A stretch of DNA of 64,000 bases from Pseudoalteromonas sp. CO133X (GTDB lineage Bacteria > Pseudomonadota > Gammaproteobacteria > Enterobacterales > Alteromonadaceae). Made by a program: the position numbers and the translations under genes. Under the pieces are notes generated by a model. That model had not been told where the DNA came from, searched no databases, and saw nothing but the letters and a program-made list of their open reading frames with translations. Each line of letters begins with the position of its first letter. Position 1 is the stretch's first letter. This document shows, piece by piece, positions 35-30,761 of this stretch. The stretch spans positions 124,001 to 188,000 of the forward strand of contig SGPE01000009.1 in assembly GCA_004208945.1 (NCBI GenBank), in the 5' to 3' direction.

Positions 35-1531
35 ATGGAATCAAAAAAAATAACCAAGGTCGTAATCGCCGGTGGTGGCACAGCAGGGTGGATAACTGCC
101 GCATTACTCAATAAAGTGTTAGGCAAAGTGCTTGATATCACGCTAGTAGAGTCAGCAGAAATTGGTACTGTTGGTGTAGGTGAAGCAAGCATTCCACCCA
201 TCTTGCATCTAAATGGTGCCCTAGGCATTTCTGAAAAAGAATTTATTAAGGCTACTGGTGCAACGATTAAGCTAGGCATCGAGTTTGAAAATTGGCGCAG
301 CCAAGGTTACAGCTACATGCACGCCTTTGGTGAGATAGGTAAAGACTTTCCGTTTTGTGAGTTTTATCATTTTTGGTTAAAAGCACATCACGCTAATAAT
401 GCACCTGACTTTTGGGATTTTTCGCTTAACTATCAAGCTGCCAAAGCACATAAATTTGCCCACCTTAAACACATTCCTAACACCCAGTTAGCGGGCTTAC
501 ATTATGCTTACCATTTTGATGCCACTCGATATGGCGAATTCTTAAAAGAATTAGCGCAATCACGGGGCGTTAAACGTATTGAAGGCAAAATTGAATCGGT
601 TAATCAATGTCACCAAAGCGGGCATATTCGCTCTTTGCTACTTAAAAATGGCGAGCAAATAGATGGCGACTTATTTATTGATTGCACAGGTTTACGTGCT
701 TTATTAATAGAACAAACCCTTAATACTGGCTTTGAAGATTGGTCACACTGGTTACCATGTGATAGCGCGATTGCGGTGCAAAGTGATTCAGCTTCTGATG
801 CAATTCCTTATACGCGTTCAATTGCAAGAGACTCAGGCTGGCAGTGGCAAATTCCATTACAGCATCGTGTAGGCAACGGACTTGTGTACTCTTCTCGTTT
901 CTTATCAGACGAAACGGCAAAACAACAGCTTTTGAATAACTTACCGGCTAAACCACTAACAGAGCCGCGTGTTATTAAATTTAAAACAGGCCGCCGTTTA
1001 AAACAGTGGCATAAAAATGTGGTATCGGTTGGCTTATCGAGTGGTTTTTTAGAGCCATTAGAATCGACCAGTATTCACTTAATTCAAAGTGCAGCCATTC
1101 GTTTAATTAAGTTTTTTCCTCATCAAGGTATTAAGCCAAGCCTTGTAGATGAATTTAATCAACAAAGTAAAACAGAATTTGAGCGAATTCGTGACTTTAT
1201 TATTCTTCATTACAAGCTTACTGAGCGTGATGACAGTGCGTTTTGGCGTTTTTGTAAAGGCATGGATATTCCAAGCAGTCTTAAAAAGAAAATTGAGCTA
1301 TTTAAAACCAGCGGCAAACTTATAAGAGAAGACGATGAATTATTTGCCGAAATTGCATGGCAGCAAGTAATGATAGGGCAAGGGCTTATTGCAGAAGATC
1401 ACCATCCATTAACTGATGCGTTATCCGATGAGCAATTAAATGAGCTATTTAGTAATTTAAAAACCTTGATTAATAGCACTGTCGAGCAGCTGCCGACCCA
1501 CAGTCAATTCTTAGAAAAAGTACAAAATTAA
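35..1531 (+). CDS. Flavin-dependent tryptophan halogenase family protein
   Basis: This 498-residue protein belongs to the flavin-dependent halogenase family (PrnA/RebH type), which uses FADH2, O2 and halide to chlorinate or brominate an aromatic substrate. The FAD-binding GGGTAGW motif is at residues 13-19 and the family WxWxIP motif at 269-274. The catalytic lysine is present (Lys79, in [10 protein letters not shown]), as is the glutamate in FLEPLEST (Glu343), so the active site looks intact. There is no signal peptide. It ends 2 bases before the next amylase gene, so it is in the maltodextrin operon. Halogenase-like genes often accompany TonB-receptor sugar loci in marine and xanthomonad bacteria, where their substrate is unknown. 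The true substrate here cannot be read from sequence. Confidence 0.9.
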
Positions 1532-27389: not shown

Positions 27390-27417
27390 AAGCGGGCCTA
27401 ATTAGGCCCGCTTTATT
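27390..27417 (+). terminator. Rho-independent terminator after alcohol dehydrogenase
   Basis: AAGCGGGCCT (27390-27399), loop AATT, AGGCCCGCTT (27404-27413), then TTATTTTA. Confidence 0.88.
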
Positions 27418-27520: not shown

Positions 27521-27958
27521 TTGTTACGGTTTTTCTCAGTCATTATCTTGCTATTTACTGTGTTCTTTAGTGCACAGAGCATGGCTATGCCTGACAATCA
27601 CTCACACTATGCTGCGACTAAATTGTTCCAAGTGAAGCTGACTAAAACCCCTGTTATTTCCCAAACTCATACAGTTGAACATCCTAAGCCGGTAGAACCA
27701 TCGGGGTTTGATACCCTTGTGCCGCGTTTAACTGCCAGTAATTCATCATTGTTTCTTTATCATAGTCAGGTTGATCCTGATTACGAGCTATTGATTGAAT
27801 TCTTTGCTGAAGATTGGGGAAAAGAGCACTTTTTAGCGCCGCCAGGTGCTGTGCGTGTGATCCCATGGTTTGCGTTAGCCACTCAACGTAAATCCCGTAT
27901 TAGTGGCTGGAAAGACGCTAATCTCTTGTACAAAGCCAATACGACCTATCATAGCTAA
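27521..27958 (+). CDS. vemP: VemP-like secreted arrest peptide upstream of secDF
   Basis: A 145-residue protein with a signal peptide (residues 1-22, cleavage near SMA) and a short mature part. Its C-terminus is RISGWKDANLLYKAN (126-140) followed by TTYHS. This closely matches the ribosome-arrest motif of Vibrio VemP as I recall it (RIxGWKETNAMYVALN), with the same Arg, Ile, Gly, Trp, Lys, Asn and Tyr spacing. As in Vibrio, the gene lies just upstream of a secD-secF pair and ends beside a hairpin that covers the secD ribosome site. VemP stalls its ribosome until the Sec machinery pulls the chain, so low SecDF activity raises secDF translation. The start is TTG; a stop codon 18 bases upstream leaves no ATG option before the signal peptide. 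Confidence 0.82.
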   Translation: MLRFFSVIILLFTVFFSAQSMAMPDNHSHYAATKLFQVKLTKTPVISQTHTVEHPKPVEPSGFDTLVPRLTASNSSLFLYHSQVDPDYELLIEFFAEDWGKEHFLAPPGAVRVIPWFALATQRKSRISGWKDANLLYKANTTYHS

Positions 27959-27960
27959 AC

Positions 27961-28028
27961 GACTTCCTTCGTTACTTTTTATTTTTTGGAATTAAATTTT
28001 TACCGGCTGACAATGCCGGAAGGAAGTC
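27961..28028 (+). promoter_or_regulatory. Stem that sequesters the secD ribosome-binding site
   Basis: GACTTCCTTC (27961-27970, 2 bases after the vemP-like stop) is the exact reverse complement of GAAGGAAGTC (28019-28028), which contains the AAGGAAG Shine-Dalgarno of secD (start 28033). A small CCGGC/GCCGG hairpin (28003-28019) lies inside the loop and abuts the right arm. A ribosome arrested at about codon 144 of the vemP-like gene would cover the left arm and free the ribosome site. Confidence 0.8.
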
Positions 28029-28032
28029 ATGT

Positions 28033-29844
28033 ATGTCACATAAATCTAAGCCGGCGCTATGGCGTCGTCTAAAAATGAGTTATGTCGCTATGATAGCGGC
28101 GTGTATTTTATTAGCGGTTAGCGCACTACCTAACCTTTACCCTAACAAATCTTGGTTGCACATTAGCTTGCCAGATCAAACTGTGACGCTGCAAAGTGTG
28201 ACAACGTCACTAAATCAACATGGTTTTGAAGTGACAGAAGCCAATGATAGCCAAGCACAACTGGCTATTTTATTAGCTGAGCCGACTCAAAGTGCTAATG
28301 CGTTGAGCTTTATAAAAACGCAATACCCACAGCTAGAGGTTAAAATTGTTGAGCATGCGACAAGCCCACAATGGCTTCAGCAGCTTGGCCTTTCACCGAT
28401 TAAATTGGGACTCGACTTAAATGGTGGCGTTTTATTTGTGCTTGATGTTGACCTAGATAAAGTAATGCAAGAGCACTTAAACAGTGTGTATCAACAAACT
28501 AAATTGACGCTTCGCAAAGACAAAATTCGTGGTATTCGGGCAAGTGAAGTAAAAGAAGGGGTTGAGCTACAAATTTTACCAAGTGGTGAGGAGCAACTTG
28601 CAGGGCTTGTCTCAACGTTACAAGGTCAATTCAAAGGCCTGATGCAAACTAAATCAACAACGAATAACCTAACCACGGTATTACTGCATTTTAATGAGCA
28701 AAGCCAAAACGAATTCAATAAACAAGTTATGGCGCAAAGCTTAACAACCCTGCGTGGTCGTATTGAAGAGCTTGGTATCACTGAAGCAGTAACGCAAAGA
28801 CAAGGTAAGCAGCGCATTCGCATTGAGTTACCCGGTGTGCAAGACCCATCTGAAGCAAAGCGTATTATCGGTGCAACTGCGACCCTCGATTTTTATCAAG
28901 TCGTCGAAGTAGGTGGTAAAGCGTTTAATGTACAAGGCGGTGGCGTTGTTAATTTAAATCCGATGGCGATTTTTTCAGGTGATCACATTAATAATGCCAG
29001 TGTTGGCAAAGATGAATGGGGCAAGCCTTTAGTTCAGCTTAGTTTAGATTCGCAAGGTGGTGATGCGATGTCTGCTTTTTCGAAGCACAACATAGGTAAG
29101 CCTATGGCCACGGTGTATTCTGAATACTCACGGGATGCAAATGGCGACGTTGTGAAAAAAAGCGAAGTGATTAATGTGGCAAACATTGCCCAACATTTAA
29201 GTTCTCGTTTTAGCATTACTAACATGAAAAGCCCGCAAGCAGCCTACGATTTAGCGCTTTTACTACGCGCAGGGTCACTCACAGCGCCAGTGACAATCGT
29301 TCAAGAACAAACCATAGGCCCAAGCTTAGGCAGTGAAAACATTGAACACGGTTTAGCTGCGTTAATGCTGGGTATCGGTATTACCCTTGCCTTTATGGCG
29401 CTTTGGTATCGTCGCTTAGGGCTGATTGCCAATATTGCTTTACTGCTTAATTTAACGGCTTTAGTTGGTTTAATGTCGTTATTACCGGGGGTTGTGCTGA
29501 CCTTACCGGGGATTGCAGGACTTGTACTGACGATAGGGATGGCAGTTGATACAAATGTGATTATCTTTGAGCGAATAAGAGAAGAGAAGCGTAAAGGTCG
29601 ACCTACATATCAAGCGATTGAGCAAGGTTATAACCAAGCTTTTACGACTATTTTTGATGCCAATGTGACCACCATGATCACGGCAATTATTTTATACGCT
29701 ATAGGTTATGGCCCGGTGAAAGGCTTTGCAATCACATTAGCGCTTGGACTATTAACTAGCGTTTTTACTGGCGTTTATATTTCGAAAGCCCTTAGCCAAA
29801 CACTCTACATTAAACTAACTAATTTAACGGGGGCTAAAGCATGA
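28033..29844 (+). CDS. secD: Protein translocase subunit SecD (SecDF paralogue)
   Basis: A 603-residue SecD, which with SecF uses ion flow to pull secreted proteins out of SecYEG on the periplasmic side. One membrane segment (about 15-33) is followed by a large periplasmic P1 domain that starts with KLGLDLNGGVLFVLDVD. Five more membrane segments lie in the last 160 residues. The conserved GMAVDTNVIIFERIREEKRKGR-type block (shown in part) keeps the ion-pathway aspartate. It has no yajC or tgt neighbours, unlike the standard secDF locus, and is preceded by the vemP-like gene, matching the Vibrio SecDF2 arrangement. It overlaps secF by 4 bases. Confidence 0.93.
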   Translation: MSHKSKPALWRRLKMSYVAMIAACILLAVSALPNLYPNKSWLHISLPDQTVTLQSVTTSLNQHGFEVTEANDSQAQLAILLAEPTQSANALSFIKTQYPQLEVKIVEHATSPQWLQQLGLSPIKLGLDLNGGVLFVLDVDLDKVMQEHLNSVYQQTKLTLRKDKIRGIRASEVKEGVELQILPSGEEQLAGLVSTLQGQFKGLMQTKSTTNNLTTVLLHFNEQSQNEFNKQVMAQSLTTLRGRIEELGITEAVTQRQGKQRIRIELPGVQDPSEAKRIIGATATLDFYQVVEVGGKAFNVQGGGVVNLNPMAIFSGDHINNASVGKDEWGKPLVQLSLDSQGGDAMSAFSKHNIGKPMATVYSEYSRDANGDVVKKSEVINVANIAQHLSSRFSITNMKSPQAAYDLALLLRAGSLTAPVTIVQEQTIGPSLGSENIEHGLAALMLGIGITLAFMALWYRRLGLIANIALLLNLTALVGLMSLLPGVVLTLPGIAGLVLTIGMAVDTNVIIFERIREEKRKGRPTYQAIEQGYNQAFTTIFDANVTTMITAIILYAIGYGPVKGFAITLALGLLTSVFTGVYISKALSQTLYIKLTNLTGAKA

Positions 29845-30761
29845 GATGGTCAACATTAACTGCAGCGAGTAAAGCGCGCGTTTTAGGGTTATTACTAAGT
29901 TGTGTTTTAGTCATCGCGAGCTTAAGTGCTTTATCTGTAAAAGGGCTAAACTTTGGTCTTGATTTTACAGGTGGCTACATCAGTGAAATTAACACAACGT
30001 CAGTGACGTCAATTGCTGATTTAAAAGCAAAGTTAAGCCCTGAGGTTGCGAGTAAATTAACCATTAGTAAAGCGGGTGAATATCACTTTGTTTTAAGAGA
30101 AGCACCAGAGGCTAGCAAAGCGAGTACTTGGCAAGCAGAGCTGAATGAGCAAGGTGTAGACTATAGCGTCTTATCTAGCTCATTTTTAGGTTCACAAGTG
30201 GGTGATGAGCTTTTTGAGCAAGGTTGTTTAGCTTTATTTGCGGCGCTGATTGCAATTATGGTTTATCTTGCCGTGCGCTTTGAATGGCGACTCGCGGTAG
30301 GTTCAGTGGTTGCACTGTTACATGATTTAATCTTAGTGCTTGGTTTGTTTTCCTTGTTAGGGCTTGAATTTAATTTAACCGTGCTGGCGAGTTTACTGGC
30401 TATTATTGGTTATTCATTAAATGACTCAATTATTGTTGGCGACAGAGTCAGAGAGCTTTTACGTATTCAGCCAGACAATCAACGCATTAATACCCATGTT
30501 GTAATTAACGATGCAATTGGCTCTACGTTAACGCGTACATTGATCACCTCAGGCACAACACTTGCGACCATTGCTTGCATTTGGCTGCTTGCAGGGGCTG
30601 CATTAACGGGTTTTGCCATCGCGTTATTTGTAGGCATTGTGGTGGGCACCTTCTCATCGATTTGTATCGCTGCGACCTTGCCGCAGTTATTGGGGTTAAG
30701 TTCAGAAAATTACACCCAAACACTGGATGATAAAACCAAAGCCTATATGGATATGCCATAA
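29841..30761 (+). CDS. secF: Protein translocase subunit SecF (SecDF paralogue)
   Basis: A 306-residue SecF partner of the preceding SecD. The first membrane segment (about 12-32) leads into the GLDFTGGYISEI block and a short periplasmic domain. Five membrane segments follow from about residue 130. LLHDLILVLGLFSLLG and IGYSLNDSIIVGDRVREL are the conserved SecF blocks, including the SLND(S/T) motif. Its ATG overlaps the secD stop (ATGA), so translation is coupled and the hairpin control of secD extends to secF. In Vibrio the second SecDF is thought to be proton-driven for low-salt conditions; whether that holds here is inference. Confidence 0.93.
   Translation: MRWSTLTAASKARVLGLLLSCVLVIASLSALSVKGLNFGLDFTGGYISEINTTSVTSIADLKAKLSPEVASKLTISKAGEYHFVLREAPEASKASTWQAELNEQGVDYSVLSSSFLGSQVGDELFEQGCLALFAALIAIMVYLAVRFEWRLAVGSVVALLHDLILVLGLFSLLGLEFNLTVLASLLAIIGYSLNDSIIVGDRVRELLRIQPDNQRINTHVVINDAIGSTLTRTLITSGTTLATIACIWLLAGAALTGFAIALFVGIVVGTFSSICIAATLPQLLGLSSENYTQTLDDKTKAYMDMP

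What the first reader, a model, noticed from the sequence alone, without database searches (positions are those of the whole stretch)
27521..28032. VemP-like ribosome-arrest sensor controlling a second SecDF outside Vibrio
Sequence: a 145-residue secreted ORF (TTG start) ends in RISGWKDANLLYKAN plus five residues. Two bases after its stop lies a 10-base arm that pairs exactly with the secD ribosome site (27961-27970 with 28019-28028), then secD-secF. Known: in Vibrio alginolyticus, VemP stalls its ribosome through a C-terminal motif (RIxGWKETNAMYVALN as I recall), which opens a hairpin to raise SecDF2 when secretion or salinity changes. Inference: the same switch operates here. Aligning the motifs puts the stalled P-site near codon 144, whose leading edge would cover the left arm.
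Basis: partly seen in the sequence, partly recalled or inferred. Interest (0 to 1): 0.93.

Follow-up and report, generated by a model that had tools for sequence, protein, structure and literature searches.

The report
VemP-type secretion sensor beyond Vibrio
In a marine Pseudoalteromonas, a small gene lying just before a second set of protein-export motor genes ends in the same motif as Vibrio's ribosome-stalling sensor VemP and is followed by a predicted RNA hairpin over the next gene's start signal, so it likely turns that motor on when export slows.

Summary
Confirmed and extended. ORF 27521-27958 has a signal-like start, low dN/dS and the published VemP-class motif RxxxWKxxNxxY. A profile comparison with Vibrio VemP aligns 22 ungapped columns (P 1.5e-7), putting Tyr143 on VemP stall residue 156. 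A perfect 10-bp inverted repeat covers the secD ribosome-binding site (13 of 20,000 shuffles do as well). The genome has a separate primary secDF.

The family runs through the GTDB order, against a 2024 statement that it is Vibrio-specific.

New leads: the cassette also precedes a secreted S41 peptidase, with strong hairpins, and yqjA-mzrA, with mixed hairpin evidence; one Pseudoalteromonas group has lost the motif's Arg and Trp, gained cysteines, and keeps the hairpin in register.

Against strict VemP identity: Arg-85 and V151/L153/N154 are missing, and a ribosome on codon 143 would reach only 2-4 of the 10 bp. Stalling is untested. The window's gene is a new member of the VemP class.

The parts
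27521..27958 (+). VemP-class monitoring-peptide ORF (145 aa, TTG start)
   Evidence: dN/dS 0.10-0.16 in 4 pairs of its group
27521..27586 (+). signal-peptide-like N-terminus (codons 1-22, MLRFFSVIILLFTVFFSAQSMA)
   Evidence: read from sequence; no signal-peptide predictor run; start position agrees with relatives in A3
27749..27769 (+). LFLYHSQ, same spacing as the VemP short hydrophobic segment LALF-NTQ; the next residue is Val, not Arg-85
   Evidence: sequence against L163 and PMC11470409 passages
27896..27931 (+). arrest motif R126-ISG-W130-K-DA-N134-LL-Y137
   Evidence: R126, W130, N134 invariant and G129, K131, Y137 at 90% or more in 35 family rows; aligned to VemP R139-Y150
27947..27949 (+). 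predicted stalled P-site codon 143 (Tyr), equivalent of VemP residue 156
   Evidence: ungapped hhalign register; arm register of the family
27961..27970 (+). left arm of the switch hairpin, starts at P+14
28019..28028 (+). right arm, holds the secD Shine-Dalgarno AAGGA (28020-28024)
28033..29844 (+). secD2 (target)
   Evidence: NCBIfam TIGR01129 and Pfam SecDF domains; VemP-linked SecD group
29841..30761 (+). secF2 (target)
   Evidence: TIGR00966, PF02355
27390..27413 (+). terminator-like hairpin after the upstream dehydrogenase gene; the scan found none between the ORF and secD

Best explanation
ORF 27521-27958 is a VemP-class monitoring peptide whose C-terminal motif is predicted to stall its ribosome at about codon 143, which would open the hairpin 27961-27970/28019-28028 that likely masks the secD ribosome-binding site and so raise SecDF2 when export is slow. 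Shown by calls: the ORF, its selection, the motif and its homology to Vibrio VemP, the inverted repeat over the SD, its compensated conservation in register with the motif across the family, the separate primary secDF. Inferred: the stall, release by the pulling force of export, SD exposure, and a response to low Na+ or low proton-motive force as in Vibrio.
For: Profile-profile match Pseudoalteromonas (A3, 12 rows) to Vibrio VemP (A4, 6 rows): probability 93.9, P 1.5e-7, 22 columns without gap, 122-143 on 135-156. Profile A1, which holds no V. alginolyticus-type row, matches 87 of 394 genomes of the order at E<=0.01; it reaches other Vibrio members at about 1e-18 and the V. alginolyticus-type L163 only at 0.006. 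65 of 108 Pseudoalteromonas genomes match (12 of these are the cysteine variant and 3 the S41 type). Of 119 distinct motif ORFs, many of them near relatives, 105 have secD next; of 51 clusters, 42. Cross-pairing of arms in the 51 representatives: own minus foreign -2.87+-0.53 kcal/mol at +6, within about 0.5 of zero from -90 to -6 and from +18 to +78; mean own -9.76 against permuted -7.05, sd 0.36, 0 of 20,000 with a window from P+6, z -4.5 and 0 of 20,000 with one from P+12. In 17 representatives with longer tails the signal follows the stall codon (-3.56+-0.85) somewhat better than the stop (-2.47+-1.05). A footprint to P+15 eases SD opening by 2.20+-0.33 kcal/mol in the 46 of 51 computed (28 gain over 1), control 0.44 (13 over 1). 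dN/dS is low, and lower over the last 30 codons than over the whole ORF in 14 of 14 pairs. VemP-linked SecDs and SecD1s separate with 100/100.
Against: Not kept in the window: Arg-85 (Val84), V151, L153, N154 of VemP, which are invariant in A4. In the window itself a footprint to P+15 lowers the cost of SD opening only from 6.94 to 5.04 kcal/mol (a gain of 0.5 in the family-wide set-up), P+17 to 2.63, while P+12 raises it to 9.12; a terminating ribosome would lower it to 2.04, so coupling without arrest is not excluded. In 13 of the 51 representatives the own arm ranks below 25th of 51. No SD was seen for the ORF by eye and no sigma-70 match upstream. Only the motif region aligns to VemP. No stall data.
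Confidence: 0.87

Rival explanations
1. Leader ORF with plain translational coupling: any ribosome that reaches the stop codon opens the hairpin and lets secD be read, without programmed arrest.
For: A ribosome on the stop codon would free the SD more than one on codon 143 (2.04 against 5.04 kcal/mol).
Against: Does not explain a signal-bearing ORF with a VemP motif kept over 22 columns, nor dN/dS of 0-0.13 over the last 30 codons (14 pairs); and in 17 members with long tails the arms follow the motif slightly better than the stop, a difference within the errors.
Confidence: 0.07
2. Arrest peptide of this motif, but the regulated trait is not Sec force: e.g. a small ligand or ion sets the stall, and the signal peptide only disposes of the product.
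For: Arg-85, which imposes PpiD dependence on VemP release (PMC7793623, passages), is missing in the window; some relatives sit before genes outside the Sec pathway.
Against: Signal-like N-terminus in nearly all representatives (listed, judged by eye) and secD as the next gene in 105 of 119.
Confidence: 0.05
3. The secreted protein has its own periplasmic job and the inverted repeat is incidental.
For: No function could be assigned by Pfam or NCBIfam.
Against: 13 of 20,000 shuffles; own-arm pairing in the family at one place only; W116, R126, W130, N134 invariant in 35 rows, of which all but one of the other 34 are at most 43% identical to the window.
Confidence: 0.01

Closest known systems
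VemP of Vibrio alginolyticus (vemP-secD2/F2)
   Same: Signal-bearing ORF before a second secDF; R, S-G-W-K, N and Y of the motif in the same register; 2 (window) or 3 (VemP) residues after the stall codon; hairpin over the secD SD whose arm starts at P+14 (window) or P+12 (L163, V. alginolyticus-type).
   Different: Window lacks His138, V151, L153, N154 and Arg-85 equivalents; 145 against 159 aa; different linker between the Sec-contact region and the motif.
VemP-like class of Fujiwara et al. 2024 (PMC10987492; passages plus sections 6 and 14 read)
   Same: Meets its criteria: uORF of secDF, N-terminal signal, RxxxWKxxNxxY-like motif.
   Different: The main text names no Pseudoalteromonas (0 occurrences); its supplementary lists could not be opened, so the window's gene may already be among the 339. 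It screened only upstream of secA, secDF and yidC.
uDF_RQH_Enterobacterales of Alteromonas naphthalenivorans (PMC10987492, passages)
   Same: Arrest peptide with N-terminal signal, stem-loop partly masking the secDF2 SD, arrest-dependent secDF2 expression shown there.
   Different: RGPP motif; no such motif in the window.
SecM (secA) and MifM (yidC2)
   Same: Monitoring-substrate logic (as described in PMC7897499, passages).
   Different: Different arrest motifs and targets.

Membership tests
VemP class (broad, as in PMC10987492 Methods) | small uORF of unknown function directly upstream of secDF, same strand | tested here: met
VemP class (broad, as in PMC10987492 Methods) | RxxxWKxxNxxY-like motif near the C-terminus | tested here: met
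   R126..W130-K131..N134..Y137, conserved in relatives
VemP class (broad, as in PMC10987492 Methods) | homology to V. alginolyticus-type VemP | tested here: met
   hhalign P 1.5e-7; only the motif region aligns. Their own clustering was not repeated
VemP class (broad, as in PMC10987492 Methods) | N-terminal localisation signal and spacer over 30 aa | tested here: met
   hydrophobic stretch within residues 4-18, spacer about 100 aa; by eye, no predictor available
VemP class (broad, as in PMC10987492 Methods) | hairpin masking the downstream SD, opened by the stalled ribosome | tested here: inconclusive
   hairpin and register met; opening is inferred and by calculation marginal for the window
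VemP class (broad, as in PMC10987492 Methods) | translation arrest and export-coupled release | not testable with these tools
   needs in vitro translation, toeprint, pulse-chase
V. alginolyticus-type VemP (strict) | PTC-proximal V151, L153, N154 | tested here: not met
   K138, N140, T141 in the window; invariant in the 6 Vibrio rows of A4
V. alginolyticus-type VemP (strict) | Arg-85 three residues after the short hydrophobic segment | tested here: not met
   segment and Gln are there at the same spacing (LFLY-HSQ), next residue Val84
V. alginolyticus-type VemP (strict) | (hydrophilic)xP motif around P67 | not tested
   no reliable alignment in that region
V. alginolyticus-type VemP (strict) | second secDF beside a primary one | tested here: met
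   SecD1 at G000:C34 with tgt- and yajC-like ORFs upstream, recognised by eye; tree
V. alginolyticus-type VemP (strict) | induction at low Na+ because SecDF1 is Na+-driven and SecDF2 H+-driven | not testable with these tools
   ion coupling not examined
RQH arrest peptides (RAPP-like) | R-A/G-P-P-like motif | tested here: not met
   no such motif in the ORF

The most novel reading that the evidence does not exclude
The VemP arrest cassette is not a Vibrio SecDF2 device but an order-wide, portable export-force switch that evolution has re-plugged: besides secDF2 it controls a secreted S41 peptidase (Pseudoalteromonas, Ferrimonas, a Psychrobiaceae MAG, Gilvimarinus) through an SD-masking hairpin placed at the same distance from the stall codon, and sits before yqjA-mzrA in Yersinia, Serratia, Hafnia and kin (MzrA being a SecD N-terminal fragment). 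In one Pseudoalteromonas group the Arg and Trp of the motif are replaced by a cysteine-bearing version while hairpin and register stay, which would be a second, possibly redox-tuned, way of stalling by the same lineage.
Probability: 0.55. Interest if true: 0.8.

Novelty: new member of a known kind. Interest (0 to 1): 0.62.

Why it matters
[quoted passage not shown] The wider family offers two direct tests: can the same stall switch drive a protease instead of an export motor, and can a lineage lose the Trp that VemP cannot do without and still stall?

Tried and rejected
Single-sequence PDB search for the ORF gave no match. Rfam 'evalue' search around the switch gave six weak matches, none reaching its gathering score and none on the hairpin. 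The first homologue search gave 6 hits; the alignment search gave 45, with Moritella, Ferrimonas and a Kangiellaceae MAG among the names. Class-wide search (5 of 369): the three matches outside the order end before the motif and were set aside. ChaA as a target: 1 of 119 and 3 of 118 loci, but no own-arm pairing (+0.65+-0.67 at +6, 3 loci; L117 rank 42 of 51), so not claimed. yqjA as a switched target: pairing good in 3 representatives (L015, L034, L151), absent as a group in the 13 named loci (+0.20+-0.63), and blocking gives no gain in L034 and L151, so only the gene order is claimed. E. coli strain WB61 has a 27-residue annotated ORF before yqjA without the motif; other E. coli were not read. 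Nine motif matches in unrelated taxa were judged chance. Library searches (PMC open licences only): VemP with Pseudoalteromonas, with DedA, with Photobacterium, and arrest peptide with peptidase S41 found 0 papers each; VemP with protease or ChaA listed 15 of 18 papers, none with ChaA; two further searches were not informative on this point.

Full report
What is in the window. The stretch lies in a Pseudoalteromonas genome: the closest named protein is 94% identical over 86% and from P. arabiensis. Between a zinc alcohol dehydrogenase-type gene with its terminator-like hairpin (27390-27413) and secD-secF lies ORF 27521-27958. It begins with a hydrophobic, signal-like stretch and ends RISGWKDANLLYKANTTYHS. 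Neither Pfam nor NCBIfam names it. The TTG start agrees with the starts of relatives in alignment A3. It is under purifying selection: dN/dS 0.16 against P. lipolytica-type L045, 0.10-0.14 in three further pairs of its group, 0.12-0.24 in ten pairs of a second Pseudoalteromonas group; over the last 30 codons 0-0.13, lower than over the whole ORF in 14 of 14 pairs.

The hairpin. 27961-27970 and 28019-28028 are perfect complements; the right arm contains the secD Shine-Dalgarno AAGGA, eight bases before ATG 28033. In 20,000 dinucleotide shuffles of the region 13 had as long a perfect match between those zones. RNA folding gives -22.7 kcal/mol, z -2.07.

It is a relative of VemP. Twelve Pseudoalteromonas proteins (A3) were compared as a profile with six Vibrio proteins (A4) whose first member, L163, carries the signatures quoted for V. 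alginolyticus VemP (TLALFNTQR, QSP, HRISGWKETNAMYVALNSQ; 159 aa). hhalign: probability 93.9, P 1.5e-7, 22 columns without gap, window 122-143 on VemP 135-156. VemP stalls with residue 156 in the P site (PMC5449182, passages), so codon 143 is the predicted stall codon here. A pairwise BLASTP finds the same core, 9 of 14 identical. Kept are the counterparts of R139, S141, G142, W143, K144, N147, Y150. Not kept are V151, L153, N154 and Arg-85, all invariant in A4. The short hydrophobic segment and Gln-84 have counterparts at the same spacing (LFLY-HSQ), which I take as suggestive only.

Distribution. With the window protein alone 33 of 394 genomes of the order match at E<=0.001; with profile A1 (35 rows, none V. 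alginolyticus-type) 87 of 394 at E<=0.01. The V. alginolyticus-type L163 is reached only at 0.006, other Vibrio members at about 1e-18, and some of the weakest matches lack the motif (L156, L162, L165 among those read; L157 is a variant). Pseudoalteromonas: 65 of 108 genomes, 66 places, about 50 of them read. Rest of the class: 5 of 369 with profile A2, of which two are the window and a family member and three end before the motif. A few believable loci carry names that I recall as lying outside the order (L288 Gilvimarinus, L196 Pseudohongiella, L276 titled Marinobacter), so the limit to the order is not strict. [quoted passage not shown] PMC10987492 reports 339 VemP-like sequences by a motif that the window meets (passages); its main text does not name Pseudoalteromonas, and I could not open its supplements.

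What lies downstream. One search listed 148 rows with the motif; two rows (a second strand of L134, and L165) and duplicate proteins were dropped, leaving 119, many of them near relatives. Next gene: secD 105, S41 peptidase 7, DedA/YqjA 4, ChaA 1, none within the fetched DNA 2. In 51 clusters of the 117 with a next gene: secD 42, S41 5, DedA 3, ChaA 1. The named 118: secD 81, YqjA 13, ChaA 3, S41 2, other 19. Of the 19, nine are judged chance hits in unrelated taxa, five end too early to tell, and five are L182 (a short SecD-like ORF, by eye), L196 (an ABC-permease-like protein, by eye), L217 (RodA/FtsW family), L234 (a small ORF, then a DedA-like protein) and L293.

SecD2. The window genome has another secD (42% identical) on contig C34, with tgt- and yajC-like ORFs upstream and a secF-like ORF downstream, recognised by eye. 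In a tree of 58 SecDs, many of the VemP-linked ones cut short by the locus end, the 42 VemP-linked and 13 SecD1 rows are separated by a branch with 100/100 support; the V. alginolyticus-type SecDs are one twig of the VemP-linked side. Of 26 relatives searched 16 are Pseudoalteromonas: the 11 with a match have a second SecD; of the five without, four have none and the fifth (G463) has the cysteine variant below, missed by the profile.

A test of the switch. If the ORF stalls where VemP does, the SD-masking arm should sit at the ribosome's front edge in all members, whatever its sequence. For the 51 representatives (ORF ends clustered at 60% from 117 loci; start codons chosen by SD strength, codon and position, never by pairing) I slid an 18-base window along the message and compared pairing with the own SD region against the mean over foreign SD regions. 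The difference stays within about 0.5 kcal/mol of zero from -90 to -6 and from +18 to +78, and is -1.45+-0.44, -2.87+-0.53 and -1.96+-0.48 at 0, +6 and +12 from the predicted stall codon. With a 24-base window from P+6 the own pairs average -9.76 against -7.05 (sd 0.36) permuted, 0 of 20,000; with one from P+12, z -4.5, 0 of 20,000. The window's own arm ranks first among 51 both ways. In 17 representatives with longer tails the signal is a little better aligned to the stall codon (-3.56+-0.85) than to the stop (-2.47+-1.05), a difference within the errors. In the 81 named secD loci, unclustered, the lowest value is again at +6 (-2.15+-0.38), but on a broad base of -1.4 to -1.7 from -12 to +12. 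Not all members fit: in 13 of 51 the own arm ranks below 25th of 51, in part perhaps because the start codon was misjudged. Within Pseudoalteromonas the arms change together: GACUUCCUUC/GAAGGAAGUC in the window group, UUCUUCC/GGAAGAA in L038, UUUUCUUAU/AUAAGGAAAA in L059, UUUCCUUAUU/AGUAAGGAA in L086.

How far the ribosome reaches. Over the 46 representatives that could be computed a footprint to P+15 lowers the cost of opening the SD by 2.20+-0.33 kcal/mol (28 of 46 by more than 1), a control block further on by 0.44 (13 of 46). In the window the gain is small: 6.94 free, 5.04 at P+15, 2.63 at P+17, 9.12 at P+12, and 2.04 for a ribosome on the stop codon. The exact stall codon or edge therefore matters here, and simple coupling remains a live rival.

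Re-wiring. S41: the peptidases tested (L033, L074) have an S41 domain and an IRBP-type N-terminal domain and a signal-like start by eye. In Pseudoalteromonas the 8 close orthologues (E<=2.1e-90; 108 of 108 genomes have some S41 match) all have a small ORF upstream ending in a W-[RH]-[DN]-[SN]-N motif; two more distant paralogues looked at do not. None of these 8 genomes had a secD-linked match. Own-arm ranks among 51: L016 1, L074 1, L082 1, L033 3, L018 19; L288 (Gilvimarinus) beats 47 and L250 49 of 51 foreign partners. The nine non-secD representatives together give -5.66+-1.26 at +6. YqjA: the order is ORF-yqjA-mzrA in Yersinia, Hafnia and Edwardsiella (MzrA seen within reach in 7 of 13 named loci); MzrA of L034 matches the SecD N-terminal Pfam domain (1.5e-19) and, weakly, the SecD model (2.4e-8), so this looks like a remnant of the vemP-secD2 neighbourhood; the hairpin evidence is mixed. 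A PMF or ion theme linking SecDF2, YqjA (alkaline-pH sensitivity on loss together with YghB, start of the abstract of PMC10846249) and ChaA is a guess.

Cysteine variant. In 14 loci (12 Pseudoalteromonas, L157 from another genus, L354) the end reads like PWHQCATRARTGLINDCQPANLTYRARLTYQLSA: the Trp and Arg positions are lost, two cysteines appear, N and Y or F stay, and a SecD-like gene follows. W143A abolishes VemP arrest (PMC7793623, passages). Yet own-arm pairing at +6 is -5.93+-0.70 in the 13 loci parsed (L157 was not parsed; the loci are close relatives and the baseline upstream is -1 to -2). So the switch geometry is kept with another motif.

Verdict. The stall is untested. The wider family is where the surprise lies.

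Noticed in passing
L016, L018, L031, L033, L074, L075, L082, L250, L288, L295-L302: VemP-type ORF before a secreted S41 peptidase, with an SD-masking hairpin of up to 14 bp in the best cases; the 8 Pseudoalteromonas genomes with it showed no secD-linked copy.
   Followed up: yes
L068-L073, L076-L081, L157, L354: Variant of the arrest motif without the Trp and Arg, with two cysteines, still before secD and, in the 13 of 14 parsed, with the hairpin in the same register.
   Followed up: partly
L015, L034, L151, L152 and 13 named loci such as L183, L194, L200, L218: VemP-type ORF before yqjA (mzrA next where seen) in Yersinia, Serratia, Hafnia, Edwardsiella and kin; MzrA matches the SecD N-terminal domain. 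The one E. coli genome read lacks the ORF.
   Followed up: partly
L117, L203, L239, L257: VemP-type ORF before a ChaA-like cation/proton antiporter in Vibrionaceae, without hairpin support.
   Followed up: partly
L197, L217: Photobacterium ORF ending HRLGGWKEANIQY with a second hydrophobic stretch before the motif; in L217 a RodA/FtsW-family gene follows, in L197 the locus ends.
   Followed up: partly
L234: Photobacterium lutimaris: VemP-type ORF, then a short ORF with one hydrophobic segment (no Pfam match), then a DedA-like gene.
   Followed up: partly
L162: ORF ending RLTHNKQANLLYKIINAFD (no Trp) before a gene whose first 110 residues have no Pfam match.
   Followed up: partly
window 28029-28043: An out-of-frame ATG overlaps the secD start (ATGTATGTCACATAA, four codons and a stop); the first codon is TTG in L045.
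   Followed up: no
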